Positions 9,399-44,608 of a DNA stretch of 64,000 nucleotides are shown here, one piece after another (within the stretch, counting starts at the first letter, position 1; each line of letters begins with the position of its first letter). The translations under genes and the position numbers were made by a program. The notes under the pieces are model-generated. The model saw only the letters and a program-made list of their open reading frames with translations. It had not been told where the DNA came from and did not search any database. This stretch comes from Janibacter sp. CX7 (lineage in GTDB: Bacteria > Actinomycetota > Actinomycetes > Actinomycetales > Dermatophilaceae): the NCBI RefSeq assembly GCF_024362365.1, contig NZ_CP101464.1, forward strand, positions 2,790,001 through 2,854,000. Direction: 5' to 3'.

Positions 9399-9430
9399 AA
9401 CTCCGCAAAACCCTAGGGTCTTGCAGGGTT
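9399..9430. repeat. 32-bp CCTAGG palindrome, copy A
   Basis: The left arm AACTCCGCAAAACCCTAG meets the right arm GGTCTTGCAGGGTT around a CCTAGG centre. It is the first of a pair; copy B starts exactly 42 bp later. Confidence 0.9.
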
Positions 9431-9440
9431 GAGCCACTCC

Positions 9441-9472
9441 AACTCCGCAGGACCCTAGGGTTTTGCAGGGTT
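9441..9472. repeat. 32-bp CCTAGG palindrome, copy B
   Basis: Same element as copy A with small changes (AACTCCGCAGGACC on the left, TTTTGCAGGGTT on the right), 42 bp downstream of it. The pair sits just upstream of the AbiEi-like gene. Confidence 0.9.
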
Positions 9473-9531
9473 GATGCCTGGCCTGTGGATAACGGCGGCG
9501 CCGGGTGCCGCCGCTCGGCCACGGTGGGGGC

Positions 9532-10470
9532 ATGCCCGGACCTCCTGCTCGCCACCGAGACATCTCCGCCCTGCGTGACCTGCCGCTCTTCACCAGCAGA
9601 GAAGCTCGCGAAGCGCGCCTGTCCGGGCACGACCTGGCGATCTTGGCCCGGCGCCAGCTCGTCTTGCGGGTCGCCCGCGGGTGGTACTCCTGCCTCGTCG
9701 ACGCCTCGGAGGAAGAGCTCCACGTCCTCAGGACGGTCGCCAACCTGCGCCTCCTCGGCGGCACCGCGGTGGCGTCCGGCATGTCCGCCGCCCTGGTCCA
9801 CGGGCTGCCGCTCGCCAGGTGTGACCTGTCCACCGTCGAGATCGCCACCGAGGGGGTCGGCCACGGCCGAACCCGGCAGGGTGTGCGCGTCAGCGAGCAC
9901 GCGACGAAGGGGGCGCAGCGGCTGGCCGTCCACGTGCCGCTCGTGGGCACGAGCGTCCCCGTCGTCGACCTCGCGAGCGCGATCGTCGGGACGGCGCTGT
10001 CCGGGGCCACGTCCGCGGCCCTCGTCGCCGCCGACCACGCGGTCCGCCACGAGGTGTGCACCTCCGAGCAGATCCAACAGGCACTGGCGGCTCGACACGG
10101 CTTCCGTGGGATTGCCCGGGCCCGCACCGCCCTCGAAATCGTCGATGGCAAGCACGAGTCACCCGGCGAGACCTTGACCGCGATGATCCTGCGCGAAGGG
10201 CCGTGGGACTTCGAGCCCCAACTGCGGGTGAGCGCGCGCGGCCGCAACTTTCGGCTCGACTTCGCGCTGCGTGAGCACAAGGTCGCCATCGAGTTCGACG
10301 GCGAGGGCAAGTACACCGGTCCCGAGGTGATGGAGGACCAGCTGGCTCGGCAGGCAGCACTCGAGGCCGAAGGGTGGGTCTTCGTGCGACTGGGCTGGGC
10401 CGACCTGGACGATCCTTCGACGCTCCTGCGACGGATCGCCGACGCTGTCGCCATCGCCGACGCGCGCTGA
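9532..10470 (+). CDS. AbiEi antitoxin/DUF559-like protein
   Basis: A 312-residue cytosolic protein. ATG 9532 is preferred because GGTGGGGG precedes it; an ATG at 9505 is also in frame. The N-terminal 'LPLFTSREAREARLSGHDLAILARRQLVLRVARGWYS' resembles the winged-helix AbiEi antitoxin domain. The C-terminal part (FRLDFALREHKVAIEFDGEGKY...EGWVFVRLGWADL) has the D...E.D.. pattern of the restriction-endonuclease-like DUF559/Vsr fold. Such proteins are frequent, often multicopy, orphan genes in actinobacteria. No AbiEii toxin nucleotidyltransferase lies beside it. It is bracketed on both sides by pairs of the CCTAGG palindrome. Its function is unproven. Confidence 0.7.
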   Translation: MPGPPARHRDISALRDLPLFTSREAREARLSGHDLAILARRQLVLRVARGWYSCLVDASEEELHVLRTVANLRLLGGTAVASGMSAALVHGLPLARCDLSTVEIATEGVGHGRTRQGVRVSEHATKGAQRLAVHVPLVGTSVPVVDLASAIVGTALSGATSAALVAADHAVRHEVCTSEQIQQALAARHGFRGIARARTALEIVDGKHESPGETLTAMILREGPWDFEPQLRVSARGRNFRLDFALREHKVAIEFDGEGKYTGPEVMEDQLARQAALEAEGWVFVRLGWADLDDPSTLLRRIADAVAIADAR

Positions 10471-10518
10471 TCTCCCCTTCGCCGCCGGTCCACCGCCGAC
10501 CACGACCCGGCATGACAG

Positions 10519-10550
10519 AACCCTGCAAGACCCTAGGGTTTTGCAGGGTT
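10519..10550. repeat. 32-bp CCTAGG palindrome, copy C
   Basis: A near-perfect copy: left arm AACCCTGCAAGACCCTAG, right arm GGTTTTGCAGGGTT. It lies 48 bp after the AbiEi-like gene and pairs with copy D. Confidence 0.9.
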
Positions 10551-10561
10551 CTGGGGCCGTC

Positions 10562-10593
10562 AACTGCGCAGGACCCTAGGGTCTTGCGAAGTT
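10562..10593. repeat. 32-bp CCTAGG palindrome, copy D
   Basis: A diverged copy (AACTGCGCAGGACC ... GTCTTGCGAAGTT) 43 bp after copy C, between the AbiEi-like gene and the convergent hisC-type gene. Confidence 0.85.
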
Positions 10594-10616
10594 GCGGGCC
10601 AGGGGTAGGTGGCAGG

Positions 10617-11690
10617 TCAGGCCGGGCCGAAGGCCCGGGCCACCGCGATCAGGCGGTCGTTGGCCTCGGGCTCGCCGATGGTCACCCGCACGCCGTCGGT
10701 GCCGTAGGGGCGCACGGACAGGCCGGCCTCCGTGCAGGCGGCGACGAAGTCGGCCGTGCGCTCGCCGAGCGGGAACCACACGAAGTTGGCCTGACTCGGG
10801 GTCATCTGCCAGCCGGCCTCGGCGAGGGCGGCGAGGACCCGCTCGCGCTCGGCGACGATCTCCTTGACCCGCACGTCGAGCTCGTCCTTCGCCTCGAGCG
10901 AGGCGACCGCCGCGGCCTGGGCGAGCAGGTTGACGCCGAAGGGGGTCGCGGTCTTGCGCAGCGCCTCGGCCACCGGCTCCGGCGCGACGGCGTAGCCGAC
11001 GCGCAGCCCGGCGAGGCCGTAGGCCTTGGAAAAGGTGCGCAGGAGCATGACGTTGCCGTGCTCGCGACGCAGGGAGAGCCCGTCGACCTCCCCTTCGCCC
11101 TCCACGAACTCGAGATAGGCCTCGTCGACGACGACGAGGACGTCACGCGGCACCTTGGCGATGAAGGCTTCGAGCTCCGCGTGGGTCACCGACGGACCGG
11201 TCGGGTTGTTGGGGGTGCACACGAGCACGACGCGGGTGCGGTCGGTGATCGCGGCGGCCATCGCGTCGAGGTCGTGGCGCTGGTCGGCGGTCAGCGGCAC
11301 CTGGACCGACACGGCGCCGGCGATGGCGACGACGATCGGGTAGGCCTCGAAGGAGCGCCACGCGTAGACGACCTCGTCACCCGGGTCGCACGTCGACTGG
11401 ATGATCTGCGCGAGCACGCCCACCGACCCGGTACCGGTCGCGATCTGCTCGCGCGGCACGTCGAGGTGCGCGGCGAGGGCGTCGGTGAGGGCCGTGACCC
11501 CCATGTCGGGGTAGCGGTTGACCCCGGCGGCGGCCTGCGTGATGACGTCGACGACCGAAGGGAGGGGAGGGTACGGATTCTCGTTGGAAGAGACCTTGTA
11601 GACCGTCACTCCGTCACGCGGGGCGGGCGGCTTGCCGGCCACGTAGGCGGGGACCTGGTCGAGGGCGGAGCGCAGCCGGGGTGACGTCAT
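10617..11690 (-). CDS. hisC: Histidinol-phosphate/aromatic aminotransferase (HisC family)
   Basis: A 357-residue class I/II aminotransferase; the start at 11690 ([10 protein letters not shown]) is the usual length for the family. It has the HisC hallmark [16 protein letters not shown], the PLP-lysine motif [17 protein letters not shown] and [11 protein letters not shown]. It transfers the amino group from glutamate to imidazole-acetol phosphate or an aromatic 2-oxoacid. There are no other histidine genes nearby, so it may be the second HisC paralog of actinobacteria, which often acts as a phenylalanine/tyrosine aminotransferase (pat). It is flanked by palindrome pairs C/D and E/F. Confidence 0.88.
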
Positions 11691-11730
11691 GCCCGGCACC
11701 CTAGTGGCCCGCCTCTCCACGGGACGCCAC

Positions 11731-11762
11731 AGCCCTGCAGGACCCTAGGGTCTTGCAGGGTT
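11731..11762. repeat. 32-bp CCTAGG palindrome, copy E
   Basis: Arms AGCCCTGCAGGACCCTAG and GGTCTTGCAGGGTT; 42 bp before copy F, upstream of the hisC-type gene and downstream of the holin-like gene. Confidence 0.9.
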
Positions 11763-11772
11763 GGAAGGCCGG

Positions 11773-11804
11773 AACTCTGCAGGACCCTAGGGTCTTGCAG
11801 AGTG
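11773..11804. repeat. 32-bp CCTAGG palindrome, copy F
   Basis: Arms AACTCTGCAGGACCCTAG and GGTCTTGCAGAGTG. The two ends change together (CTCTGCA with TGCAGAG), which keeps the pairing. Confidence 0.9.
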
Positions 11805-11838
11805 TCGGGGCGCAGAGCTGGGCTGCAGAGGCTCTGGG

Positions 11839-12237
11839 TCAGCGGTCGAGGTCCTCCTTCTCCGGCAGCACCCAGTTGAGGATCATCGAGACGATGGTGA
11901 TGACGAGGGCGCCGATGACCGCGTCCCACCAGAACTTCGTGATCTCGAAGTCGAGGCCCAGCGGCGAGGCGATCCACTCGGTCAGCTGCAGGAGGAAGGC
12001 GTTGACGACGAAGGTGAACAGGCCCAGCGTCAGGACGATCGCGGGGAAGGCGAGCACCTTGGCGATCGGCTTCACGATCGCGTTGACGACACCGAAGATC
12101 AGGGCGACGAGGACGATCGTGGCGAACTTCGAGGCGAAGGTCGCGCTGCCGTCGGCGAGGTGGATGCCGTCGATGAGCCACGCGCAGACCCACAGCGCCA
12201 CGGCGTTGACACCGGTCCGGATCAGGAAGTTGGTCAT
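11839..12237 (-). CDS. Phage-holin-family 4-TM membrane protein
   Basis: A 132-residue protein (start 12237, MTNFLIRTGVNA) with four hydrophobic helices and the conserved 'FGVVNAIVKPIAKVLAFP' and 'NAFLLQLTEWI' segments of the actinobacterial 'phage holin family' (DUF360-like) proteins. These are widespread chromosomal membrane proteins of unknown role and are not evidence of a prophage; no phage genes are nearby. It is divergent from the substrate-binding/VWA gene. Confidence 0.8.
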   Translation of the reverse strand: MTNFLIRTGVNAVALWVCAWLIDGIHLADGSATFASKFATIVLVALIFGVVNAIVKPIAKVLAFPAIVLTLGLFTFVVNAFLLQLTEWIASPLGLDFEITKFWWDAVIGALVITIVSMILNWVLPEKEDLDR

Positions 12238-12365
12238 GGCCCCAGCATGGCAGCCCGACGTGATCGTGGGCACGTGACGGTCCGCGCCGGGCCACCCGAG
12301 GTCACCCGTGGTCCATACTTGACCGGCCGGTAGCGACGGAGTATCGGCGATGGAGGACAGCACGG

Positions 12366-14135
12366 ATGAGCGACGGACGCCCGGGACGACGACACGACCT
12401 GTGGGACGACGACGAGCAGGAGACCTCGCGCGCGACCTCCGCGAGCGAGCGGACCGGCTCCGCGGCGAGGTCGAAGGGGGCGGCCGCGGCTGCCGCAGGC
12501 CCCGCACCTTCGCGCCGGTCGCGACGTGAGCAGGAGTCGAGCAAGCGTCGCTGGCTGGTTCCGGTCGCGATCCTGCTCGTCCTCGCCCTCTGCGGCGGCG
12601 GCGCCTGGGCGGCCCTCGGTGGCGGCGGTGACGACACCGCCTGCGAGGGCGACCCGCTGACCGTGGCGGCCACCCCCGAGATCGCCGATGCGCTCGAGGA
12701 CGCCCTGGCCAAGGTGCGCGAGAGCGACTCCTGCGCCAACTTCGACATCTCGTCGACCTCCGCCGCCGACGCGGCGAAGAACATCAACGACGGCAACGGC
12801 CCGGACATCTGGGTCCCCGACAGCTCGACCTGGATCGACGCGGTCGACCCGACGAAGACGACCGGTCAGTGGCTCGAGGGCAGCTCGATCGCCTCCTCCC
12901 CCGTCGTCCTCGCGTCGAGCCGGGAGCAGAAGGACGCGGTGAGCAGCTTCAGCTCCTGGGCCAACCTCGTCAACCAGGACGGCGGGCTGCGGATGGCCAA
13001 CCCCGACTCCGACACCGCCAGCCGCCTTGCGTACCACGCCAGCCGCATCGGCCAGCCGGGCAAGATCGGCCTCGACACCGGCAAGCGGCTGATCTTCATG
13101 TCGCGCTTCGCCGCGAGCTCGCTCCCCCAGCTCTTCGACGGCTACGCCAACGACCCGGCGAAGAGCCAGCCCTTCCCGGCCTCGGAGCAGCAGATCGCCG
13201 CGTGGAACACGGACAACGGCGACGCCACCCCCCTTCGCGCCGTGATGCCGGACAAGGGCACGCTGACGCTCGACTACCCGTGGATCACCAACCCGACCCT
13301 CGCCGGCGACGACCTCAAGGCCGCCGAGAGCGCCCGCAAGGAGCTCGGCTCGCTCGAGGTGCGCCAGGCCCTCACCGACGCCGGCTTCCGCGACTCCAAG
13401 GGTGGCGGCGGGCCGAAGATCGACGGCAAGGCCCCGGCGAAGCTCACCGCGCTCTCGCCACTCGACCGCAACGAGCGGATCGCCGCCGTCGAGCAGTGGG
13501 ACGTCATGCGCACGGACATGCGGATGCTCGCCCTCATCGACGCCTCCGGCTCGATGAAATGGGACAGCCCGACGCCTGGCCAGACGCGCTGGGACGTGAC
13601 GAAGGGAGCGCTGCTCCAGGGCGCCGAGATGCTCCCCGCGGGCAGCCAGGTCGGCGCATGGGCCTTCAGCAGCGATCGGGCCAAGGGCAAGGACTACGAG
13701 GAGATCGCCCCGGTCAAGCGACTGGACGCCGCCGTCGGCACGGGCAGCCACCGCGACCGGCTGCTCCGGCTCATCAACGGCTCGGACAAGCTCATCGAGG
13801 GCGACACCGCGCTCTACGACTCGATCTGGGCCGCCCACCAGCAGATGGTCAAGGACTACGACCCCGACTACGTCAACTCGATCGTCGTCTTCACCGACGG
13901 GGAGAATGACGACCCCAACGGCGGGCTCGCGCTCAACCAGCTGCTCAAGAAGCTCGACGAGAGCTACGACCCGAAGCGCCCCGTGCGCGTCGTGACGATC
14001 GGCATGGGCGAGGCCGACCCGACGGCCCTGCAGAAGATCGCCGACGAGACCGGCGGCACCAGCTACATCGCCGAGACCCCCGACGACATCGAGCGCGTCT
14101 TCGTCCAGGCGCTGCTCGCGCGCACGCGCGACTGA
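12366..14135 (+). CDS. Membrane-anchored substrate-binding and VWA domain protein
   Basis: A 589-residue protein. A basic, Ser/Ala-rich cytoplasmic segment (1-60) leads to one transmembrane helix (about residues 62-80). A periplasmic-binding-like domain (about 95-330) then resembles bacterial extracellular solute-binding proteins. The C-terminal von Willebrand A domain has a complete MIDAS: DASGS (DxSxS) at about residue 395 and a later FTDGENDD. Such fusions occur in actinobacteria; the ligand is unknown and a metal-dependent adhesion or sensing role is only inferred. It precedes the amino acid ABC operon but is separated from it by a hairpin. Confidence 0.8.
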   Translation: MSDGRPGRRHDLWDDDEQETSRATSASERTGSAARSKGAAAAAAGPAPSRRSRREQESSKRRWLVPVAILLVLALCGGGAWAALGGGGDDTACEGDPLTVAATPEIADALEDALAKVRESDSCANFDISSTSAADAAKNINDGNGPDIWVPDSSTWIDAVDPTKTTGQWLEGSSIASSPVVLASSREQKDAVSSFSSWANLVNQDGGLRMANPDSDTASRLAYHASRIGQPGKIGLDTGKRLIFMSRFAASSLPQLFDGYANDPAKSQPFPASEQQIAAWNTDNGDATPLRAVMPDKGTLTLDYPWITNPTLAGDDLKAAESARKELGSLEVRQALTDAGFRDSKGGGGPKIDGKAPAKLTALSPLDRNERIAAVEQWDVMRTDMRMLALIDASGSMKWDSPTPGQTRWDVTKGALLQGAEMLPAGSQVGAWAFSSDRAKGKDYEEIAPVKRLDAAVGTGSHRDRLLRLINGSDKLIEGDTALYDSIWAAHQQMVKDYDPDYVNSIVVFTDGENDDPNGGLALNQLLKKLDESYDPKRPVRVVTIGMGEADPTALQKIADETGGTSYIAETPDDIERVFVQALLARTRD

Positions 14136-14157
14136 GCAGCGGTCACGACACGGTGAA

Positions 14158-14187
14158 GGTCGCGGCGGGGGTGTCCCCGCCGCGACC
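14158..14187. terminator. Terminator hairpin
   Basis: A perfect 13-bp GC-rich stem (GGTCGCGGCGGGG with its complement) with a GTGT loop, 22 bases after the stop of the VWA gene. It probably separates that gene from the ABC transporter operon. Confidence 0.7.
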
Positions 14188-14257
14188 GGCACGGTGGCAC
14201 CATGGCCCGACAACCGGGCACATCCCCACGTGCCCCACTGCATCTGGAGGACACACC

Positions 14258-16981: not shown

Positions 16982-16986
16982 GAGGC

Positions 16987-25888: not shown

Positions 25889-27538
25889 ATGCGGCCCTTC
25901 GACCCACGCCTGCTGCGGGCGGTCCCGGCGACCCGCCGGCCGGTCGCCGCCCTGGCAGCCATCGGCATCGCGCAGGGCATCGCGACGATCGCGACGGCCT
26001 TCGCCCTCGCGTCCCTCGTCGTCGCGGTCGTGCGTGGGTCTGACCTGCTCGCACCGCTGGCGTGGACGGGTGGGCTCTTCGCCGCCCGCGCCCTGCTCGG
26101 GGCCCTGTCGGAGACCGTCGCGGCGCGGGCCGGCGCCGCGGTGGCGACCGGACTGCGGGAGCAGCTGCTCGCGGCCTGGGCTGCGCGTGGTGAGCGTGGA
26201 CTCCCTTCGCGCACAGGGGCGTTGACGCTCGCGGTGCAGGGCACGAGCACCGTCGAGCCCTATGTCGCGAGGTACCTGCCCGCCCTCGTCGGTGCCGCCG
26301 TCGTGCCGGCCCTCGCCATCGCCTGCCTCGTCGTCGTCGACTGGCCGAGCGCGGCGATCGTCGTCGGCACGGTGTGGCTGCTGCCGCTCTTCGCGGCGCT
26401 CATCGGTGCGACGACGCAGGCCGACACGGAGCGCCGGTGGGGTGCGCTCGCCGACCTGTCGGGGCACTTCCTCGACGTCGTGCGCGGGCTGCCGACGCTC
26501 GTCGCCTACGGGCGCGCCGAGCGGCAGACCGCGACGATCGCCGAGGTGAGTCAGCGGCACCGGCGGGCGACGATGCGCACGCTGCGGCTGGCCTTCATGT
26601 CCGCCGCGGCGCTCGAGCTGCTCGCGACGATCTCGGTGGCGATCGTCGCCGTCGTCGTCGGCCTGCGCCTGACGCACGGGTCGATGGACCTGCTCGTCGG
26701 GCTCACGGCGATCCTCCTCGCACCCGAGGCCTACTGGCCGATTCGTCGGGTCGGCACGGAGTTCCACGCCGCCGCCGACGGTGCCGCCGCCCTCGACGAG
26801 ATCCTCGCCGAGCTGGCACCCTCTGACCCCACAACTTCGCAAAACCCTAGGGTTTTGCAGAGTTCGAGCCCCACAACTTCGCAGGACCCTAGGGTTTTGC
26901 AGAGTTCGGGCGGCGGGTCTGCGACGGGCGAGGTCGTCTCGGTCACGGGCGTCGACTACACCCACCCCGGGGCGAAGGGGGCGACCCTCACCGGTGTCGA
27001 CCTCGTCGCCGGTCGCGGCCTCACCGTCGTCACCGGGCCCTCTGGGTGCGGCAAGACGACGCTGCTCGAGGTCATCGCCGGCACCCGCACCGCCGACCGC
27101 GGCGAGGTCGTCGCCGGACCGGTGCACATGGTGACGCAGCGCCCCTTCCTCGGCGCGGGCACGCTGCGCGACAACCTGACCATCGGTGGCCCGCAGGAGT
27201 CCGCGGACCTGTGGCGGGTGCTGCGCGAGGTCGGCCTGGACGGCGTCGTCGCCGGGCTGCCCGACGGGCTCGAGACCCGGATCGGCGATGACGGCTTTGG
27301 GCTGTCAGCCGGGCAGCGCGCCCGACTCGTGCTCGCCCGCGCGATCCTCTCCCCCGCACCCGTGCTGCTGCTCGACGAGGTCACCGCGCACGTCGACGCC
27401 GACTCCGTCGCCACCCTCGGCGAGGTCATCGCCCGGCTCGCGAAGGAGCGCACGGTCATCGCCGTGACCCACCAGCCCGACCTCGTCGCCCGCGCCGACG
27501 AGCACGTCGCCCTGCGCCAGCCGGAGGTGGCCCGATGA
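25889..27538 (+). CDS. cydD: Cysteine/glutathione-type ABC exporter subunit CydD
   Basis: A 549-residue half-transporter needed for cytochrome bd assembly. Six membrane helices (to about residue 300) precede the ATPase domain: Walker A GPSGCGKTT, signature GLSAGQRARLVLARAIL and Walker B VLLLDEVTAHVD. The linker, about residues 312-340 (TSQNPRVLQSS twice), is encoded entirely by two in-frame copies of the 32-bp CCTAGG palindrome. Its stop overlaps the cydC start (ATGA). The family exports thiols to set the redox state outside the membrane. Confidence 0.92.
   Translation: MRPFDPRLLRAVPATRRPVAALAAIGIAQGIATIATAFALASLVVAVVRGSDLLAPLAWTGGLFAARALLGALSETVAARAGAAVATGLREQLLAAWAARGERGLPSRTGALTLAVQGTSTVEPYVARYLPALVGAAVVPALAIACLVVVDWPSAAIVVGTVWLLPLFAALIGATTQADTERRWGALADLSGHFLDVVRGLPTLVAYGRAERQTATIAEVSQRHRRATMRTLRLAFMSAAALELLATISVAIVAVVVGLRLTHGSMDLLVGLTAILLAPEAYWPIRRVGTEFHAAADGAAALDEILAELAPSDPTTSQNPRVLQSSSPTTSQDPRVLQSSGGGSATGEVVSVTGVDYTHPGAKGATLTGVDLVAGRGLTVVTGPSGCGKTTLLEVIAGTRTADRGEVVAGPVHMVTQRPFLGAGTLRDNLTIGGPQESADLWRVLREVGLDGVVAGLPDGLETRIGDDGFGLSAGQRARLVLARAILSPAPVLLLDEVTAHVDADSVATLGEVIARLAKERTVIAVTHQPDLVARADEHVALRQPEVAR
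26833..26864 (+). repeat. 32-bp CCTAGG palindrome, copy G, in frame in cydD
   Basis: Arms AACTTCGCAAAACCCTAG and GGTTTTGCAGAGTT. It is read as TSQNPRVLQSS in the linker between the membrane and ATPase domains; copy H follows 42 bp (14 codons) later. Confidence 0.92.
26875..26906 (+). repeat. 32-bp CCTAGG palindrome, copy H, in frame in cydD
   Basis: Arms AACTTCGCAGGACCCTAG and GGTTTTGCAGAGTT. It is read as TSQDPRVLQSS, in the same reading frame as copy G. Confidence 0.92.
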
Positions 27539-29316
27539 CCCGATGCACTCCCCCTTCGCCATCGGTCGCGGACACCCGTCGACCCGCTGCCGGCCGCCTG
27601 CTGCACCTGAGCCGCGGGCTCGTCGTCGCCGGGCTGCTCGGTGGGGTCGCCACCGCCGCCGGCATCGCCCTGACGACGACGTCCGGGTGGCTCATCGTCC
27701 GCGCCGACCAGCGGCCGCAGATCATGCTGCTGCTCACGGCGATCGTCGCGGTCCGCACCTTCGGCCTGGCGCGGCCGGTCTTCCGCTACTGGGAGCGGCT
27801 GCGCAGCCACGACACCGCGCTCGCCGACCTCGCCGACGCGCGGACGAGCACCTATGCCGCGCTCATCCCGCTCACGCCCGCGCGACTGGGCCGGCGCGGT
27901 CGGGCCGAGGTGCTCACCGGCGTCGTCGACGACCTGACCGACGTCGTCGAGGCCTCGGTGCGGGTCACCGTACCGGCCCTGTCGGCCCTGCTCGCCGGGG
28001 TTCTCGCCGCCGCCCTCACCGCCCTCGTCGACCCGCGGGTCGGGCTCGTGCTCGCCGCGATGCTCCTCGCCGTCGCCGGGGTGGCCGTGGTCGCCGACCG
28101 GCTCGAGTCGCGCTCCCAGACGCAGGTGCTCGCCGCCCGCGCCGAGGTCGCCCGGGTCGCGCAGCTGACCGTCGGGCAGGCCGACGAGCTGCGCGTCGTC
28201 GGCGGCACCGAGACCGCCGCTGGCTGGCTGCGCGCGGCCCACGCCGAGCTGCGGGAGAGCGTCGCCCGCCAGTCGCGGGGCCGATCGCTCTCTGCCGCAG
28301 CGGTGCTCGTCATCACCAGCCTCGCCACCCTGGCCGCCGCCGCCCTCGCAAGCACCTCCGGCGCGGACACCCCCGTGCGAGCCCTGCTCGTCCTCGCCCC
28401 CGTCGCCACGGGTGAAGCCCTCGGCGTGCTCACCGATGCCACCCGTGCCCTCGCCCGGGCCCGCGCCTGCGCCGCCCGGCTCGACGAGCTGCTCGACCAG
28501 GAGCCGGCCGTCGTGCCGCCGCCAACCCTGCAAAACCCTAGGGTCTTGCAGGGTTCTGGGCCGTCAACTCTGCAAAACCCTAGGGTCTTGCAGGGTTCTG
28601 GGTCGCGCGGGGAGCCGCGGGCGCCCCGGGCCCCGCGGGCGCCGCGGATCGAGCTGCGCGGGCTGACCGCGGGCTGGGTCGACGGCCGCACCGACCTCGG
28701 GCCGGTCGACCTTACCGTCGAGCCGGGCGAGCACATCGCCATCACCGGGCCCAACGGCAGCGGCAAGTCGACTCTGCTCGCCGTGCTCGCCCGCCACCTC
28801 GACCCGACGACCGGCAGCTACACCGTCGACGGCACCGATGCCACGACCGCGCCCCTCGACGACGTGCGGGCGCTCATGGCGATCGTCGACGACGAGCCGC
28901 ACGTCTTCGCCGGCACCCTGCGGGCCAACCTGGCGCTCGCCGCACCCGAGGCGGACGACGAGGCGCTCGTCGACTCCCTTCGTCGGGCCGGTCTCGGCTG
29001 GTGGCTCGACGGCCTCGCAGACGGCCTCGACACCCGGCTCGGCACCACGGGTCGCGGCATCTCCGGCGGGGAGCGGGCGCGGCTGTCGATCGCCCGCGCC
29101 ATCGCCAGCGGGCGGCCGGTCATCCTGCTCGACGAGCCCGTCGCCCACCTCGACCACCCGACCGCCGACGCCGTCATCGCGGACCTGCTGCAGCACGCCG
29201 GCGACCGGTCGGTGATCATGGTGACCCACCACGGTGTCGGCCTCGACCGCATGGACCGCACCATCACCATCGCCAGGGAAGGAGCCACCCGTGGCCAGGA
29301 ATGCATCCCTCGGTGA
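27535..29316 (+). CDS. cydC: Cysteine/glutathione-type ABC exporter subunit CydC
   Basis: A 593-residue partner of CydD. A six-helix membrane domain is followed by an ATPase with Walker A GPNGSGKST, signature GISGGERARLSIARAIA and Walker B VILLDEPVAHLD. Residues about 331-354 (TLQNPRVLQGS twice) come from two in-frame CCTAGG palindromes, at the same inter-domain position as in CydD. A Pro/Arg-rich stretch (PRAPRAPRAPR) follows. It overlaps cydD by four bases and blaI by 26 bases. It acts with CydD in the membrane to allow cytochrome bd maturation. Confidence 0.92.
   Translation: MTRCTPPSPSVADTRRPAAGRLLHLSRGLVVAGLLGGVATAAGIALTTTSGWLIVRADQRPQIMLLLTAIVAVRTFGLARPVFRYWERLRSHDTALADLADARTSTYAALIPLTPARLGRRGRAEVLTGVVDDLTDVVEASVRVTVPALSALLAGVLAAALTALVDPRVGLVLAAMLLAVAGVAVVADRLESRSQTQVLAARAEVARVAQLTVGQADELRVVGGTETAAGWLRAAHAELRESVARQSRGRSLSAAAVLVITSLATLAAAALASTSGADTPVRALLVLAPVATGEALGVLTDATRALARARACAARLDELLDQEPAVVPPPTLQNPRVLQGSGPSTLQNPRVLQGSGSRGEPRAPRAPRAPRIELRGLTAGWVDGRTDLGPVDLTVEPGEHIAITGPNGSGKSTLLAVLARHLDPTTGSYTVDGTDATTAPLDDVRALMAIVDDEPHVFAGTLRANLALAAPEADDEALVDSLRRAGLGWWLDGLADGLDTRLGTTGRGISGGERARLSIARAIASGRPVILLDEPVAHLDHPTADAVIADLLQHAGDRSVIMVTHHGVGLDRMDRTITIAREGATRGQECIPR
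28524..28555 (+). repeat. 32-bp CCTAGG palindrome, copy I, in frame in cydC
   Basis: Arms AACCCTGCAAAACCCTAG and GGTCTTGCAGGGTT, read as TLQNPRVLQGS. Copy J starts exactly 42 bp later. Confidence 0.92.
28566..28597 (+). repeat. 32-bp CCTAGG palindrome, copy J, in frame in cydC
   Basis: Arms AACTCTGCAAAACCCTAG and GGTCTTGCAGGGTT, again read as TLQNPRVLQGS. Confidence 0.92.
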
Positions 29317-30580: not shown

Positions 30581-30612
30581 AACCCTGCAGGACCCTAGGG
30601 TTTTGCAGAGTT
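30581..30612. repeat. 32-bp CCTAGG palindrome, copy K
   Basis: Arms AACCCTGCAGGACCCTAG and GGTTTTGCAGAGTT, 19 bp after the M56 stop. Only a degenerate trace of a second copy (GGTCCTTGCAGGCC) follows, so it is effectively single. Confidence 0.88.
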
Positions 30613-31980: not shown

Positions 31981-32365
31981 CCGCGAGCGGCGCTGGCCGG
32001 CGGCGCTCGGCGGATGTGCCGCCGGCGCCGCCGGCCTGCTGCTCGTGGTCGGCGCCGTCGGCCTCGCCGAGTCCGTGCTCGTCGGCGGGCAGACGCGGGA
32101 GTGGTGCGAGGAGCTCACTGACGACCCGACGGCCACCGTGCGCGAGCGGTGCGTCCGCGAGCGCGACAACGTCAACATCGTCGCGTCCGACGAGCACCTC
32201 GTGGAGTTCTACTACCGCCACACCGGCGGCGTGCGCTACGAGCCGCACCCCTGGCCGCTCTCCGGCGAGGTGGAGGTGGAGTTCGGCGACGGCGAGGTGA
32301 CCCTGCGCAACGACGCGGGGATGGCGGCGACCTACCCCGACGAGGTCTTCCACGACGCGCGCTGA
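31973..32365 (+). CDS. Small membrane-anchored hypothetical protein
   Basis: A 130-residue protein starting at GTG 31973 within the end of the AIM24 gene. One hydrophobic helix (about residues 10-35) is followed by an extracytoplasmic domain with two Cys (WCEELTDDP...RCVRERDN). No family was recognised. The overlap suggests coupled translation with AIM24. Confidence 0.7.
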   Translation: MADRERRWPAALGGCAAGAAGLLLVVGAVGLAESVLVGGQTREWCEELTDDPTATVRERCVRERDNVNIVASDEHLVEFYYRHTGGVRYEPHPWPLSGEVEVEFGDGEVTLRNDAGMAATYPDEVFHDAR

Positions 32366-32372
32366 GCGCACT

Positions 32373-32404
32373 ATCTGGGCAAAACCCTAGGGTTCTGTGC
32401 AGTT
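32373..32404. repeat. Degenerate CCTAGG palindrome, copy L
   Basis: The core CAAAACCCTAGGGTTCTG is kept, but both outer arms are eroded (ATCTGGG on the left, TGCAGTT on the right). A single copy between two convergent genes. Confidence 0.75.
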
Positions 32405-32411
32405 GGTGCGC

Positions 32412-33233
32412 TCAACGCACGATGACGGTCGACCCGACCGGCATGAGGTCCTCGCTCCAGATGAGGTCCATCGCCGCATTGCTCACCCGCGCGCACCCGT
32501 GCGAGGCGGGGTAGCCGGGGATCGACGCGGCACCGTGGACGGCATAGCCGCCGTAGAAGTAGCGCGGGCTGTAGAGCGTGCCGAGCGGCGCGACCTCGTT
32601 GCCGCGGTGCGTGCGGCCGACGGTGAAGGTCCCCGTCGGCGTCACCGCGACCGCCGGTCGTCCGTGCGACATGTAGGTCTCTCCCGAGGCGGTGCTCGTG
32701 TTGATGACGTAGCGGATCGAGCCGCCGCGCACGACGAGCAGCACCTGCCGCTCGAGGTCGATCTCGATGCGGTCGGCCGCCCCCTTCGGCAGCGGCGGCA
32801 GGGTGCCGGAGGCCAGGGCGTCGAGGGTCTTGCGGCCGGCGATACCGTCGCGCCCCAGACCGGCGGACTTCTGCAGCGCGAGGACGGCCTGCTCGGTGAG
32901 GTGCCCGTAGGTGCCGTCGGCGCGGCCGTTCCAGTAGCCGGCCTCGGTGAGGTCGCGCTGCAGCCGGCGCACCTGCGGTCCGCGGTCCCCCGGACGAAGG
33001 GGGTCGCTCGCGTCCCCCTTCGCCCCTGCCGTGCTCGTGGGCGACGTGCTCGACGGCGCGCTCGTCGTGGACGTGCTCGACGAGGTGGTGCTCGGCGACG
33101 TCGTACTCGACGAGGACGTCGGCCGGTCGACCGGCGCCGTGACGGTGATCGGCTGCTGCGCCACCTGGGTGCCGCAGCCGGCGAGAGTCGCCCCGGCGAG
33201 CAGCGCCACGAGCGCTGCGCGTGCGTGAGTCAT
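32412..33233 (-). CDS. L,D-transpeptidase lipoprotein with peptidoglycan-binding domain
   Basis: A 273-residue exported lipoprotein (lipobox LAGC). A Ser/Thr-rich linker leads to a peptidoglycan-binding domain (PGDRGPQVRRLQRDLTEAGYWNGRADGTYG...GIAGRKTLDAL). The C-terminal YkuD domain carries the catalytic box HGCARVS and the upstream His of YAVHGAAS. It cross-links peptidoglycan 3-3 or attaches proteins, acting outside the membrane. It is divergent from a small Cys-rich protein. Confidence 0.92.
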   Translation of the reverse strand: MTHARAALVALLAGATLAGCGTQVAQQPITVTAPVDRPTSSSSTTSPSTTSSSTSTTSAPSSTSPTSTAGAKGDASDPLRPGDRGPQVRRLQRDLTEAGYWNGRADGTYGHLTEQAVLALQKSAGLGRDGIAGRKTLDALASGTLPPLPKGAADRIEIDLERQVLLVVRGGSIRYVINTSTASGETYMSHGRPAVAVTPTGTFTVGRTHRGNEVAPLGTLYSPRYFYGGYAVHGAASIPGYPASHGCARVSNAAMDLIWSEDLMPVGSTVIVR

Positions 33234-37973: not shown

Positions 37974-37989
37974 TCCCCCCTTCGCCCGT

Positions 37990-38025: not shown

Positions 38026-38141
38026 TCGGCATGCTGCCTGACCGGGAAGCTCGCCCTCCCTCCCGGGGTCACACATGCACGGTGACTAGGATCGGGCCAC
38101 ACCGGCCCGGAGCCGGACCCGTCCGGGCAAGGAGTGACGAC

Positions 38142-39179: not shown

Positions 39180-39202
39180 CCCCCGCCGGAGAGGATGCCG
39201 CC

Positions 39203-39709: not shown

Positions 39710-39754
39710 GGTGCGACGCAGGAGCCTCGAAGGGCGGCACGCAGACATGGGCGA

Positions 39755-39787
39755 CGGGCGCCGACTCCCCTGAAGAGTCGACGCCCG
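39755..39787. terminator. Bidirectional terminator hairpin
   Basis: CGGGCGCCGACT (39755-39766) pairs with AGTCGACGCCCG (39776-39787), one mismatch, between the convergent phosphatase and Rpf-like genes. Confidence 0.65.
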
Positions 39788-39829
39788 CCACGTGTGTGCG
39801 GCGCTCGTCAGGCGCCGGGCCGGTGCTGC

Positions 39830-40489
39830 TCAGGCACCGTTGGTCGCGGTCAGACCCGCCTTGACCGAGCACACGGGCCAGGCGCCCGGGCCCTGCTCGG
39901 CGAGGACCTTCTGCGCGATCTCGACCTGCTGCTCCGGCGTGGCCTGGTCGGCCGTCGCGGCGTACTGGTCGCCGCCGTAGGCCAGCCACGTGTCGGGGCT
40001 GAACTGCAGCCCGCCGTAGTAGCCGTTGCCGGTGTTGATGCTCCAGTCACCGCCGGACTCGCACTCGGCGACCGCGTCCCACACGGACGGGTAGCTGCCG
40101 GCGGTCGTGCCGTCGGTGTCCGTCGTGGTGTCGGTCGTAGTGGTGTCGGCGGTCGTGTCCGTCGTCGTGTCGACGGTCTCGACCGGAGCCTCCTCGACGG
40201 GTGCCTCCTCGACCGGGGTCTCCTCGGCGGGTGCCTCGCGCAGCAGCGCGCTGTTGTCGGAGGCGTGCTCGAGGGCCTGGTCGGACGCGTGCTCCGCGCC
40301 CTGGCCCTGCGTGGAGGGCAGGCCGGTGTGGCCGTGCGCCTCACCGGCGGGCTGGGCCTGCTCGCTGGCGTGCCCGGCGTTGGGGCCCTGGGCGGCCATG
40401 GCGGTGCCGGTGCCGGCCACGGTCAGCAGGCCGGCGGCGGCGAGCGCCTGGGCGGCGCGGCGGGTGGTGCTGTGACGGGTGGTGGCCAT
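39830..40489 (-). CDS. Resuscitation-promoting factor-like transglycosylase
   Basis: A 219-residue secreted protein (start 40489, GAGGAG upstream). A signal peptide ends AMAAQ. A long low-complexity region rich in Thr/Asp and PVEEAPVEE repeats follows. The C-terminal Rpf domain is [37 protein letters not shown], with the catalytic Glu in ECESGG, and continues to [12 protein letters not shown]. It cleaves peptidoglycan during regrowth from dormancy. No LysM or G5 domain is present. Confidence 0.92.
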
Positions 40490-40653
40490 TGGTGATGACT
40501 CCTCCTCGTCTCGGGACGCGGCCCCGTCGAGGGCCACGAGCGATCAGGTGACCGCATCGGTCGTGCCGGCGGACGGTGCCCGCCGGGCCGTCGCACACCG
40601 TAGACACAGACGGGGGGAAGATCTCAAATCGGTAACGGCTCCGCCCGGGGTGA

Positions 40654-40701
40654 CGAAGGGGGGTGCCCGGCCCCTGGTCGAGGTGACGGGCACCCCCTTC
40701 G
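40654..40701 (+). promoter_or_regulatory. Inverted CGAAGGGG hairpin in the purB leader
   Basis: CGAAGGGGGGTGCCCG (40654-40669) and CGGGCACCCCCTTCG (40687-40701) form a stem of about 15 bp around a 17-base loop, 20 bases before the purB ATG. No plus-strand gene ends upstream, so it is not an ordinary gene-end terminator; attenuation of purB is possible. Confidence 0.55.
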
Positions 40702-40721
40702 CCTCTGGGAGGATGGGGGTC

Positions 40722-42131
40722 ATGCAGAGCCTCGCTGACGCCACGCCCCAGATCGCCCTCGGCGCGCTCGACGGCCGCTACCGGCCCGCCGTCTCGCCCC
40801 TCATCGACCACCTGAGCGAGCCCGCGCTCAACCGCATGCGGGTGCACGTGGAGGTGGAGTGGCTCATCCACCTGACCTCGCAGCAGGTCGTGCCCGGTGT
40901 GCGCGCCCTCACCGAGGACGAGCAGGCGGCGCTGCGGCAGGTCGTCGAGGACTTCGGCCCCGAGGACATCGCCGAGCTCGGCGCGACCGAGAAGGTCACC
41001 CAGCACGACGTCAAGGCCGTCGAGTACTTCCTCAAGGAGCGCCTGCGCAAGATCGCGCCGGCTCCCGAGGACGCCGGCCTGTCGGAGCTCATCCACTTCT
41101 GCTGCACGAGCGAGGACATCAACAACCTCGCCTACGCCCTCATGGTCCAGGGGGCCGTCGAGGAGGTCTGGCTGCCGCGCGCCGCCGACCTCGCCGAGGC
41201 CGTCGCGGCGATGGCCGTCGACCTGCGCGACGTGCCGCTCCTCTCGCACACCCACGGCCAGCCGGCGACCCCGACGACGATGGGCAAGGAGCTCGCCGTC
41301 CTCGCGCACCGCCTGATGCGCCAGCTGCGGCGGATCCAGCACGACGAGTACCTCGGCAAGATCAACGGCGCGACCGGCACCTTCGGCGCCCACCTGGCCG
41401 CCGTGCCCGAGGCCGACTGGCTGGAGATCTCGCGCACCTTCGTCGAGGGCCTCGGCCTGACGTGGAACCCCCTGACGACGCAGATCGAGTCGCACGACTG
41501 GCAGGCCGAGGTCTACGCCGACATCGCCCGCTTCAACCGCGTGCTGCACAACCTGTGCACCGACGTGTGGACCTACATCTCGATGGGCTACTTCGCCCAG
41601 GTCCGCGGTCAGGGCACCGTCGGGTCGAGCACGATGCCGCACAAGGTCAACCCGATCCGCTTCGAAAATGCGGAGGCCAACCTCGAGGTGAGCAATGCGC
41701 TCCTCGACGTGCTCGCCTCCACGCTCGTCACCTCGCGCCTGCAGCGCGACCTCACCGACAGCTCGATGCAGCGCAACATCGGCACCGCCCTGGGCCACTC
41801 GCTGCTCGCGATCGACAACGCCGGCCGCGGCCTCGCCGGGCTCGACGCCGTGCCCGAGGCCATGGCCGCCGACCTCGACGGCAACTGGGAGGTGCTCGGC
41901 GAGCCGATCCAGTCGGTCATGCGGGCCCTCGGCGCGCAGGGCGTGCCCGGCATGGAGGAGCCCTACGAGCGGCTCAAGGAGCTCACCCGCGGTCAGCGCA
42001 TCGGCCAGCCCGAGCTCGTCGAGTTCGTCCGCGGGCTCGGCCTGCCGGCCGAGGTCGAGGAGCGGGTCGCGGCGATGACCCCGGCGACCTACATCGGCAT
42101 CGCACCGCAGCTGGTCGACCTGCTCGACTGA
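40722..42131 (+). CDS. purB: Adenylosuccinate lyase
   Basis: A 469-residue enzyme. ATG 40722 follows GGGAGG; an ATG at 40713 is also in frame. The fumarase/aspartase signature SSTMPHKVNPIRFENAEAN is intact, as are TSEDINN and SHTHGQPATPTTMGKE (catalytic His). It catalyses two steps of purine synthesis: SAICAR to AICAR and adenylosuccinate to AMP. It is of the longer E. coli-type PurB form. Confidence 0.96.
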   Translation: MQSLADATPQIALGALDGRYRPAVSPLIDHLSEPALNRMRVHVEVEWLIHLTSQQVVPGVRALTEDEQAALRQVVEDFGPEDIAELGATEKVTQHDVKAVEYFLKERLRKIAPAPEDAGLSELIHFCCTSEDINNLAYALMVQGAVEEVWLPRAADLAEAVAAMAVDLRDVPLLSHTHGQPATPTTMGKELAVLAHRLMRQLRRIQHDEYLGKINGATGTFGAHLAAVPEADWLEISRTFVEGLGLTWNPLTTQIESHDWQAEVYADIARFNRVLHNLCTDVWTYISMGYFAQVRGQGTVGSSTMPHKVNPIRFENAEANLEVSNALLDVLASTLVTSRLQRDLTDSSMQRNIGTALGHSLLAIDNAGRGLAGLDAVPEAMAADLDGNWEVLGEPIQSVMRALGAQGVPGMEEPYERLKELTRGQRIGQPELVEFVRGLGLPAEVEERVAAMTPATYIGIAPQLVDLLD

Positions 42132-42174
42132 GCTGCTCTCTCCCGACGCACCCACACGGCGGGGCCCACCACCA

Positions 42175-42206
42175 CACCCTGCAGGACCCTGGGGTCCTGC
42201 AGGGTG
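42175..42206. repeat. Variant palindrome, copy M (CCTGGGG core)
   Basis: CACCCTGCAGGACCCTGG and GGTCCTGCAGGGTG: the arms are perfect but the core reads CCTGGGG instead of CCTAGGG. A single copy after purB; a GGACCCTGGGG half lies 24 bp further on. Confidence 0.8.
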
Positions 42207-42240
42207 TGTGCGTGTCCGCGCGGACCCTGGGGCGCGGGCC

Positions 42241-42359
42241 GTGGTGACCCCCGGGTACGACGACCACTACGGCTCCAGCGAAGGGCGAAGAGCCCCGGTA
42301 CGACGGGAGCCGGCCGCCGTCACGCGTGGCGAGTGGTCGTCATACCCGCGAGTCACGAC
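42241..42359. repeat. 119-bp MITE-like inverted repeat
   Basis: 28-base ends (42241-42268 and 42332-42359) match in inverted orientation at 24 of 28 positions. An inner stem CGGCTCC (42270-42276) / GGAGCCG (42306-42312) lies inside. It sits between the convergent purB and MMPL genes and has no coding frame of note. It may be a small non-autonomous mobile element or a structured terminator. Confidence 0.6.
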
Positions 42360-42384
42360 GCTGCGGGCGGGCCGGCGAGAACCC

Positions 42385-44499
42385 TCAGCCCCTCTCCTCG
42401 TCGTCGGCCATCCGCCCGGACCCGGGCCACCAGATGCGGTTGCCCAGGTCGGTGGCGAGCGCCGGCACGAGGACCGAGCGGGTGACGAGGGTGTCGAGCA
42501 GCACGCCGAAGGCGACGATGAAGGCGATCTGCGCGAGGAAGAGCAGCGGGATCACCCACAGGGCGGAGAAGGTCGCGGCGAGGACGACGCCGGCGCTGGT
42601 GATGACCCCGCCCGTGACCGCGACGGCCCGGCGCACCCCACGGCGGGTCCCGACGTGCAGCGACTCCTCCCGCGCACGCGTCATGAGGAAGATCGAGTAG
42701 TCGACAGCGAGGGCGACGAGGAAGACGAACCCGAGCACGGGTGTCGAGGGGTCGGCGCCCGGCTGGTCGAGGACGCGGGTGAAGAGCACCGCCGAGACCC
42801 CGAGGGTCGCGGCGAAGGTCAGCACGTTGACCACGACGAGCAGCACCGCCGCCGCGACCGACCGCAGCAGGGCCATGAGCACGAGGGTGACGACGAGCAG
42901 GATCGCGGGCACGACGACGCGGTAGTCGCGGATGCTCGCGTCGTCGGTGTCGACCGCGGTCGCGGTCGCGCCCCCGACGATGATGTCGGGGTCGACGTCG
43001 TGGAGCCCGGCGCGCAGGTCGCGGACGACGTCGCGCGCCTCGGGCGACTCGGACCCGACGGTCAGGGTTGCCGAGAGCAGGGTCGACCCCGACCCCGTCG
43101 TCGACTCCTGCGAGCGGATCTGCCCCGAGACGTCGTCGTGGTCGGCGAGGACCCCCTTCGCCTCGCGGACGGCCGCGTCGGGGACGACGACCTGGACGGG
43201 CCGCTGGTCTCCCCCGTCGAAGTGCCGGTCGAGGACGCGCTGACCGTCGACGGACTCAACGTCGGTCGTGAAGAACTGTGCCTGCGTGATGCCCTGGGTC
43301 GGGAAGGTGAGCGCCGCAGCCGCGGCGACGAGCAGCACGGCGGTCGTCACGACCCAGGTGATGCGGGGACGGGACGTCACGCGACGCGCCACACCGGACC
43401 AGAGCCGGTGCTGCGGGCGCGTGCCGCGTCGGGGCACGGACGGCCAGAAGGCGGCCCGGCCCAGCAGCGCGAGGGCCGCGGGGAGCAGGGTGAGCGAGGC
43501 GGTCATCGCCCCGGCGATGCCGAGGGCACCGACCGGCCCGAGGCCGGCGATGTTGCCGAGGTCGGACAAGAGCAGGCAGAGCAGGCCCGCGATGACGGTG
43601 CCGCCACTGGCCGCGACCGGCCCCAGGGTCTGGCGCCACGCGATGCGCAGGGCCGGCAGCGGGTCGGCCGCGTGCAGCTCCTCGCGGTAGCGCGCGACGA
43701 GCAGCAGCGAGTAGTCGGTCGCGGCGCCGACGACGAGGATGAAGAGGATGCCCTGGCTCTGGCCCGAGAGCTGGATCCAGTCGGCGGCGGCCATCGGGTG
43801 GATGAGCAGTGCCGCGAGCGCGAGCCCGAAGATGCTCGTGAGGAGCACGACGAAGGGGAGGACCGGGCTGCGGTAGACGACGAGCAGGATGACGAGCACG
43901 ACGGCGAGGGTGACGAGGAGCAGCAGCCCGTCGATGCCGGCGAAGGCCTCGCCGAGGTCGGCGGCGAAGCCCGCCGGGCCGGTCACCGCCACCGTGGCCT
44001 TGTCGACGTCCGGGGCCAGGCTGCCCCGCAGGTCGTCGACGAGCAGGTCGGAGATGCTCGTCTCGTCGACGGTCTCCTCGACGGCCGCTGCGTCGAGGCT
44101 GAGGACGACGATCGCCGCGTCGCCGTCCTCCGACGGGATCACCGGGATCCGTTGGGCGGCAAGGTAGTCCGCCACCGTCCCCGGCGCGGAGTCCAGCTGC
44201 TGACGCGGCAGCCGCTCGGCCCAGTCGCCGAGCTCGGCGAGCTGGTCACGCCTCAGCCCACCCTCGGCCTCCACGGCCACGATGAGCGGCAGCGTGGAAT
44301 CGGCCTCGAAGTCCGGGAGCTGCTCGGCCACGCGGGTCGACTCGGCGGACTGCGGGAGGAAGGAGGCCTGGTCGTTGTCCTGCACGCTCGACAGCTGGCC
44401 GACGAGCGGCCCGCCCACCGCCCCCACGGCGAACCAGAGCACGATGACGAGGCCGGCGAGGAGGCGGGGCAGCACGCTGGGGCGCGAGAGGGAGGACAT
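42385..44499 (-). CDS. MMPL family transporter
   Basis: A 704-residue transporter starting at ATG 44499. Two six-helix halves carry the relay motifs VVGAATDYSLLLVARYREEL and LVALAVDYSIFLMTRAREES. It resembles the YdfJ/actII-3-like branch. It is not closely similar to the MMPL protein at 35619. No regulator is adjacent; its promoter region holds palindromes N and O. The substrate is unknown. Confidence 0.9.
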   Translation of the reverse strand: MSSLSRPSVLPRLLAGLVIVLWFAVGAVGGPLVGQLSSVQDNDQASFLPQSAESTRVAEQLPDFEADSTLPLIVAVEAEGGLRRDQLAELGDWAERLPRQQLDSAPGTVADYLAAQRIPVIPSEDGDAAIVVLSLDAAAVEETVDETSISDLLVDDLRGSLAPDVDKATVAVTGPAGFAADLGEAFAGIDGLLLLVTLAVVLVILLVVYRSPVLPFVVLLTSIFGLALAALLIHPMAAADWIQLSGQSQGILFILVVGAATDYSLLLVARYREELHAADPLPALRIAWRQTLGPVAASGGTVIAGLLCLLLSDLGNIAGLGPVGALGIAGAMTASLTLLPAALALLGRAAFWPSVPRRGTRPQHRLWSGVARRVTSRPRITWVVTTAVLLVAAAAALTFPTQGITQAQFFTTDVESVDGQRVLDRHFDGGDQRPVQVVVPDAAVREAKGVLADHDDVSGQIRSQESTTGSGSTLLSATLTVGSESPEARDVVRDLRAGLHDVDPDIIVGGATATAVDTDDASIRDYRVVVPAILLVVTLVLMALLRSVAAAVLLVVVNVLTFAATLGVSAVLFTRVLDQPGADPSTPVLGFVFLVALAVDYSIFLMTRAREESLHVGTRRGVRRAVAVTGGVITSAGVVLAATFSALWVIPLLFLAQIAFIVAFGVLLDTLVTRSVLVPALATDLGNRIWWPGSGRMADDEERG

Positions 44500-44544
44500 G
44501 CCCAAACCTTAGACGAACATTGGACACAACTCTACGGTCGGCCC

Positions 44545-44570
44545 AACCCTGCAAAACCCCAGGGTCCTGC
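44545..44570. repeat. Truncated CCTAGG-family palindrome, copy N
   Basis: AACCCTGCAAAACCCC and AGGGTCCTGC: the core has drifted to CCCAGGG and the last six bases of the right arm are missing. Copy O follows 32 bp later rather than the usual 42. Confidence 0.8.
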
Positions 44571-44576
44571 GCTCCG

Positions 44577-44608
44577 AACCCTGCAAGACCCTAGGGTTTT
44601 GCAGGGTT
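44577..44608. repeat. 32-bp CCTAGG palindrome, copy O
   Basis: Full element, AACCCTGCAAGACCCTAG and GGTTTTGCAGGGTT, between the MMPL gene and the first SGNH hydrolase. Confidence 0.9.

What the first reader, a model, noticed from the sequence alone, without database searches (positions are those of the whole stretch)
9399..44608. A dispersed family of 32-bp palindromes centred on CCTAGG, mostly in pairs with 42-bp spacing
Fifteen copies (A-O) occur at 9399, 9441, 10519, 10562, 11731, 11773, 26833, 26875, 28524, 28566, 30581, 32373, 42175, 44545 and 44577. The consensus arms are AACCCTGCARRACC and its complement. Five pairs are 42-43 bp apart start to start, about four helical turns, and the sixth is 32 bp. 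The arms covary in places (CCCTGCA/TGCAGGG, CTCTGCA/TGCAGAG). Having no loop, they look more like protein-binding sites than RNA hairpins, but paired copies resemble bacterial interspersed elements. I know of no named element of this sequence.
Basis: seen in the sequence. Interest (0 to 1): 0.88.

Follow-up and report, generated by a model that had tools for sequence, protein, structure and literature searches.

The report
Nuclease gene with scattered cognate sites
Several Janibacter species have each peppered their chromosome with copies of their own short DNA word, and that word flanks one gene for a DNA-binding nuclease-like protein, which suggests that the protein recognises the word and helps it spread or persist.

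Summary
In detail: 15 copies at the stated places, 134 genome-wide. The genus is Janibacter. The sequence is private to this species (0 of 185 other family genomes), but sister species carry their own 20-bp site, mostly GCA-N4-C-NTAN-G-N4-TGC, spaced by whole helical turns (160 spacings, none at half turns). These families flank one gene, here window 9505-10470: an AbiEi-like DNA-binding domain joined to a Vsr/homing-endonuclease-like domain. Nine of 16 Janibacter genomes have the orthologue: eight hold 70-177 general-motif sites, the ninth 222 of its own word; the seven without hold 2-48, the four of these with hisC assembled 2-11. Site sequence follows the AbiEi domain, though species relatedness also correlates. 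Sites sit behind stop codons or in frame inside proteins. More distant actinobacterial relatives often have other repeats shared between both flanks (42 of 66 loci). Best reading: recognition sites of this protein, spread or maintained by it as REPs are by RAYTs, but with an unrelated enzyme. Binding, cutting and copying are inferred.

The parts
9505..10470 (+). Gene of the AbiEi-like / Vsr-like nuclease fusion, 321 aa as called; a start at about 9532 (312 aa) is likelier, as in the 99% identical database protein
   Evidence: Pfam REase_MTES_1575 E 2.5e-7 (below cut-off) and DUF559 E 0.0035; PADLOC AbiEi models; AlphaFold and structure comparison; database copy of 312 aa
9399..9430 (.). site A, upstream of the nuclease gene
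9441..9472 (.). site B, 42 bp after A
10519..10550 (.). site C, downstream of the nuclease gene, between it and hisC
10562..10593 (.). site D, 43 bp after C
11731..11762 (.). site E, upstream of hisC
11773..11804 (.). site F, 42 bp after E
26833..26864 (.). site G, in frame inside CydD
26875..26906 (.). site H, in frame inside CydD
28524..28555 (.). site I, in frame inside CydC
28566..28597 (.). site J, in frame inside CydC
30581..30612 (.). site K, between convergent genes
32373..32404 (.). site L, degenerate, between convergent genes
42175..42206 (.). site M, between convergent genes
44545..44576 (.). site N, abutting O (32 bp)
44577..44608 (.). site O, behind the stop of a minus-strand gene

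Best explanation
The palindromes are duplex-DNA recognition sites of the protein encoded at 9505-10470, a fusion of an AbiEi-like winged-helix domain and a Vsr/homing-endonuclease-like nuclease domain. The AbiEi part binds the 20-bp dyad, neighbouring complexes lying on one face of the helix, which explains spacings of 3, 4 or 6 turns. The nuclease part nicks or cuts at or near such sites, and break repair copies or converts sites from other arrays. Arrays therefore lengthen, change their word when the protein's specificity changes, and reach new places, surviving where they do no harm: just behind stop codons or in frame within proteins. Shown here: linkage of gene and sites across species, higher site number where the gene is present, covariation of site and protein, phasing, placement, turnover between species. 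Inferred: binding, cutting, and copying by repair.
For: Sites of the species' own spelling flank the orthologue in 8 of 10 close orthologue loci by motif search, and in the two G053 loci other repeats by eye; 0 of 20 distant loci have the motif. Eight orthologue-bearing species have 70-177 motif sites genome-wide, the ninth 222 of its own word and none in 15 other Janibacter genomes. Site distance follows the AbiEi domain (r 0.62, p 0.0005; 0.60 with the nuclease domain held constant, 9 lineages). AbiEi-like and Vsr/I-Bth0305I-like folds, putative catalytic acidic residues invariant in 18 of 18. 0 of 160 spacings at half-turn offsets. 30 of 31 intergenic clusters nearer a stop than a start. 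Array present in one species and absent in the other at 2873827; same place with another core at 2871882. AbiEi-type proteins are known to bind paired inverted repeats before their own gene (PMC7319586, passages).
Against: No binding or cutting shown. Species distance (hisC) correlates with site distance as well (r 0.66); given hisC the protein's effect is 0.38, p 0.02, and over 14 lineages the AbiEi effect given the nuclease domain is 0.24, p 0.053. G061 has sites on one side of its gene only. G054 (29 sites) and G065 (48) lack a detected orthologue; both are drafts without detected hisC, but G054 is called 100% complete. Intact sites on both sides of the gene are odd for a homing enzyme, which would cut its own locus. 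G091 has the gene with flanking repeats but only 10 copies.
Confidence: 0.6

Rival explanations
1. Domesticated regulator: the fusion acts mainly as a sequence-specific chromosome-binding protein, and host selection keeps arrays at gene ends as roadblocks, insulators or nucleoid sites; nuclease activity is incidental or lost.
For: Placement behind stops, 15 of 31 intergenic clusters between convergent genes and 1 between divergent ones; some places occupied in two species by different words.
Against: Acidic residues of the nuclease motif invariant in 18 of 18; 9 of 13 mapped G000 clusters have no G059 array nearby by the mapping used; copies inside proteins; rapid change of the word between close species.
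Confidence: 0.2
2. Autoregulation plus hitch-hiking: the protein binds only its own operator; the genome-wide copies are spread by an unrelated factor (another transposase or slippage and recombination).
For: AbiEi proteins are autoregulators (PMC7319586, passages); in G091 7 of 10 copies are at the gene; a distant paralogue's flanking repeat in this genome is hardly dispersed.
Against: Sites usually lie downstream of the gene too; site number follows the orthologue across species and the G053 word proved dispersed as expected.
Confidence: 0.13
3. RNA hairpins such as terminators or mRNA stabilisers.
For: Position behind stop codons; the G000 32-mer would fold at -23.4 kcal/mol, z -5.6.
Against: Words of G064, G061 and G053 do not fold better than shuffles; arms mostly vary independently; helical phasing; in-frame copies inside proteins; no Rfam match in the window.
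Confidence: 0.04
4. Ordinary REP elements moved by a RAYT (Y1 transposase).
For: Copy number, pairing and extragenic placement resemble REPs (PMC3733652 and PMC8266576, passages).
Against: No PF01797 match in this genome, while 5 of 14 control genomes ring; no terminal GTAG in the main family; three families are not hairpins.
Confidence: 0.02

Closest known systems
REPtrons (TnpA_REP/RAYT with REP/BIME)
   Same: Dispersed short palindromes, often paired, outside genes; a single-copy gene bordered by the same repeats; words differ between species.
   Different: Enzyme is an AbiEi/Vsr-like fusion, not a HuH tyrosine transposase; no GTAG; several words are not hairpins; spacing follows helical turns.
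Homing endonuclease genes, EDxHD/Vsr-like type (I-Bth0305I)
   Different: Sites stay intact on both sides of the gene and are scattered 70-222 times; DNA-binding half is AbiEi-like.
AbiEi antitoxins of type IV toxin-antitoxin pairs
   Same: N-terminal domain; tandem inverted repeats at the gene (PMC7319586, passages).
   Different: Fused to a nuclease; in the window the neighbours are an E1 dehydrogenase and hisC, no AbiEii-like toxin gene; repeats dispersed.
Rickettsia palindromic elements (recalled)
   Same: Palindromes read in frame inside protein-coding genes.
   Different: Unrelated sequence; no linked enzyme is known to me for RPEs (recalled), here one is.

Membership tests
REP/RAYT REPtron | Y1/HuH tyrosine transposase in the genome | tested here: not met
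   0 PF01797 matches in G000; the control rings in 5 of 14 genomes
REP/RAYT REPtron | GTAG tetranucleotide at the foot of a hairpin | tested here: not met
   Copies read directly start AAC and end GTT; words of G064, G061 and G053 do not fold
REP/RAYT REPtron | Repeats border a single-copy gene and are dispersed | tested here: met
Homing endonuclease gene | Homing-endonuclease-type nuclease domain | tested here: met
Homing endonuclease gene | Gene interrupts its own recognition site, so that carriers are immune | tested here: not met
   Intact sites on both sides in this genome
Homing endonuclease gene | Site-specific cleavage followed by copying of the gene | not testable with these tools
   Needs purified protein and a transfer assay
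AbiE type IV toxin-antitoxin pair | AbiEi-type winged-helix antitoxin domain | tested here: met
AbiE type IV toxin-antitoxin pair | Adjacent nucleotidyltransferase toxin (AbiEii) | tested here: not met
   Neighbours in the window are an E1 dehydrogenase and an aminotransferase; not tested in the relatives
AbiE type IV toxin-antitoxin pair | Binding to inverted repeats at its own gene | not testable with these tools
   Repeats are present; binding is not shown

The most novel reading that the evidence does not exclude
A class of selfish nuclease-site systems not found in my literature searches: AbiEi-Vsr fusion proteins of Actinobacteria that write and rewrite a private 20-bp word through their host's chromosome by break-induced copying. 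The word changes in step with the AbiEi domain, so sister species carry mutually foreign site sets at partly shared addresses, a bacterial parallel to the turnover of recombination hotspots.
Probability: 0.45. Interest if true: 0.93.

Novelty: categorically new. Interest (0 to 1): 0.87.

Why it matters
REP-like repeats are common in bacteria and how they spread is poorly understood (abstract of PMC8266576). Here an enzyme unrelated to the REP transposases is tied to such repeats across a genus, with natural replicates: nine species carrying the gene and about six site words. That makes specificity, dispersal and decay directly testable. It also offers an explanation to test for other AbiEi/DUF559-like genes of Actinobacteria that now go by the name of antitoxin or hypothetical protein, and several natural 20-bp DNA specificities on one scaffold.

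Tried and rejected
Tried without use: Rfam on the window (0 hits); Y1 transposase (0); the DUF559 Pfam model, which at its default limit misses the relevant gene in this genome; NCBIfam on seven family proteins (only weak hits far below cut-offs); plasmid and phage records (no match). Origin bias of sites: 21 zero-mismatch clusters in the terminus half against 28 in the rest of 1-2.80 Mb, p 0.026; only the listed sites were used, so I draw nothing from it. Tandem duplication of palindrome plus 10-bp flank as the origin of all pairs: over 23 pairs spacers resemble a flank slightly more than shuffled (mean 5.7 of 10 against 4.75, p 0.001), driven by a few cases, two of them one triple array. My first idea that distant paralogues lack flanking repeats was wrong: they lack this motif but many have other shared repeats.

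Errors and limits of mine: the G000 regular expression was wrong and found only 7 sites; one search repeats it correctly. One search held two duplicate loci (L208, L209), removed. One search counts positions, and 69 distinct words. Genes come from a small gene caller of my own. Site words were chosen by me from nuclease flanks. G053 spacings come from the rows listed, not from all 222 sites. I did not check that the 70 and 76 general-motif sites of G057 and G058 are all of their own word. Only CydD and CydC of the genes with inside copies were checked by family search.

Papers: PMC3710099, PMC7319586, PMC3733652 and PMC8266576 were seen as passages only; all others as search listings. No paper linking these genes to repeats appeared; the library holds open-licence papers only.
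Full report
OBSERVATION. The core GCARRACCCTAGGGTYYTGC with up to 2 mismatches occurs 134 times in the 3.23-Mb chromosome and its reversed control never. In 779,343 contiguous bases I find 69 copies with at most 10 mismatches over 32 bp; of 28 neighbouring distances 23 are 42 bp and 3 are 32 bp. The 10-bp spacers are not conserved. The arms covary only weakly, in the outer part.

SPECIES-SPECIFIC. With up to 1 mismatch the core is found in 0 of 185 other genomes of the family, 15 of them of the same genus. One of those, G063, has the contig length of Janibacter sp. Soil728 (901,467), so the genus is Janibacter.

RELATIVES HAVE THEIR OWN WORDS. Around hisC several sister species carry other repeats in the same kind of place, others none. 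Word counts on fetched stretches showed a dominant family in several species: GCATTGCC.TA.GGCAATGC (G059, G063, with a variant in G066, few copies there), GCAACTGCTTAGGCTCCTGC (G064), GCACGACCTTAAGGAGATGC (G061); flanks of the gene gave GCATCTCCCTAGGCAAATAC-like words (G058), a CTTAGG word (G057) and GCAACTGCCCGGGCAAATCA (G053). In 100 kb of G052 no such family stood out. Most words, not that of G053, fit GCANNNNCNTANGNNNNTGC. Spacings up to 75 bp pooled from six species number 160: 158 are 30-33, 41-44 or 62-66 bp, one 28 and one 52; none lies at 34-39 or 46-50; the resultant for a 10.5-bp period is 0.906 (G053 from listed rows only; some of the 62-66 may span a missed site). The words of G064, G061 and G053 fold no better than shuffled sequence, those of G000 and G059 do.

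LINKAGE. Of 10 close orthologue loci (46-100% identity) 8 have the general motif within the fetched flanks, each in its species' own spelling; 0 of 20 distant loci do (one of the 20, L179, had no gene placed). The two failures are both from G053. Read by eye, the first has five copies of its word upstream and five inverted ones downstream, the second an inverted repeat of about 75 bp. The first G053 word proved dispersed: 121 plus 101 matches in G053, none in 15 other Janibacter genomes. In G057 and G053 the gene is far from hisC and still has its repeats. G061 has sites on one side only; G058's downstream copies were read by eye.

SITE NUMBER AND GENE. General-motif counts: G000 129, G057 70, G058 76, G059 116, G061 171, G063 145, G064 177, G066 89, all with the orthologue at E <= 1e-45; G053, with two, has 9 of this motif but 222 of its own word. 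Without it: G055 2, G056 2, G060 8, G052 11, G062 17, G054 29, G065 48; 170 genomes of other genera 0-6; reversed control 0-19. G054's best hit (E 2.8e-43, 37% identity) falls just below the limit. In G054, G062 and G065 hisC was not found either, so the orthologue may be missing from the draft; G054 is nevertheless rated 100% complete. In the rows shown, sites of G052, G060 and G062 are mixed, those of G054 and G065 mostly uniform. Five genomes of two other genera pass the same limit and have 0-2 sites of this motif; they have other flanking words.

WHAT SETS THE WORD. Across nine Janibacter lineages site distance correlates with the AbiEi domain (r 0.62, p 0.0005), also with the nuclease domain held constant (0.60, p 0.0008), and not with the nuclease domain given the AbiEi domain (-0.25). 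Species distance correlates too (hisC, 0.66, p 0.003; given the protein 0.57, p 0.004); the protein's effect given hisC is 0.38, p 0.02. Over 14 lineages the AbiEi correlation is 0.43 (p 0.0015) and given the nuclease domain 0.24 (p 0.053). Telling pairs: G061 and G063 share 96% of hisC but 53% of the protein and differ at 6 of 20 site positions; G059 and G066 share 90% of hisC, 71% of the protein, and differ at 1.

WHERE SITES LIE. Of 41 clusters 31 are intergenic by my gene calls: 15 between convergent genes, 15 between co-directional ones, 1 between divergent ones; 30 are nearer a stop than a start. Ten overlap a called ORF: eight read the same frame (TLQNPRVLQ and variants), one only overlaps a gene end, one reads another frame. 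CydD and CydC were confirmed by family; the other ORFs were not checked. In the CydD linker G059, G061 and G063 have in-frame arrays of their own words; G066 and G052 have none; G064 was not readable in the cut output.

TURNOVER AND EMPTY SITES. Against G059, 13 of 17 G000 clusters could be mapped; 4 have a G059 array nearby and, by my reading, a fifth lies at the boundary of an inverted segment. Of 11 G059 clusters 7 could be mapped, 4 of them near a G000 cluster. At 2871882 both species have two sites at corresponding positions with different cores; at 2873827 G059 has no array between well-aligned flanks.

BEYOND JANIBACTER. Relatives elsewhere in Actinobacteria often share words between both flanks: 42 of 66 distinct loci share at least four 13-mers, 48 at least one (11 of 12 at 45% identity or more, 8 of 14 at 35-45%, 23 of 40 below, at the four-word limit), against 6 and 37 of 382 genes of this genome, the nuclease and hisC among the 6; mismatched flank pairings share a word in 6.9%. 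The 66 come from tool-ranked lists, not from a random sample. Dispersal is not universal: G091 has 10 copies of one word, 7 at its gene, and a distant paralogue's flanking word occurs once or twice in the 979 kb of this genome held, which do not include that gene's own place.

MECHANISM. Shown: linkage of gene and sites, site number with gene presence, covariation with the AbiEi domain, whole-turn spacing, harmless placement, change between species. Known for the domain: AbiEi and Rv2827c bind paired inverted repeats before their own gene (PMC7319586, passages). Inferred: this fusion binds its arrays, its nuclease half breaks DNA there, and repair copies or converts sites. A domesticated host role is not excluded and would explain the placement too.

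NOVELTY. It works like a REPtron but fails two defining features that I tested (Y1 enzyme, GTAG hairpin); it has the fold but not the split site of a homing endonuclease gene; it has the DNA-binding domain of AbiEi but no toxin partner beside it in this window. I found no description in the open-licence library (searches listed under Tried and rejected). I call it categorically new for the enzyme and the duplex, phased sites; whoever counts all dispersed repeats with a cognate enzyme as one kind would call it a new variant.

Noticed in passing
G000:C1:3063185-3063300 and other places in the 779 kb: A minor second family, GCATTGCCGTTGGGCAATGC and close forms, 10 matches in 779 kb; one copy lies exactly 42 bp after a main-family pair. 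It resembles the main word of G059.
   Followed up: partly
window 9399-11804: The segment with the nuclease gene and hisC is inverted relative to its flanks between G000 and G059, with arrays at both ends in G000: probably recombination between inverted sites.
   Followed up: partly
window 32363-32414 and G000:C1:2999545-2999596: Two single copies are flanked by further inverted repeats of about 10 bp, making about 52-bp palindromes; they may lie inside terminators.
   Followed up: no
L162, L169, L170, L220, L228, L229: Distant paralogues of the gene in Janibacter, Phycicoccus and a Micrococcales genome share another flanking palindrome, CGGGTNACCCG.
   Followed up: no
L166 (second G053 orthologue), L206 (G090): Here the gene is bordered by long imperfect inverted repeats, like the ends of a transposon.
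   Followed up: no
G000 stretches: The word CGGGGCGAAGGGGG is over-represented (19 on both strands in 779 kb against 0.14 expected); nature unknown.
   Followed up: no
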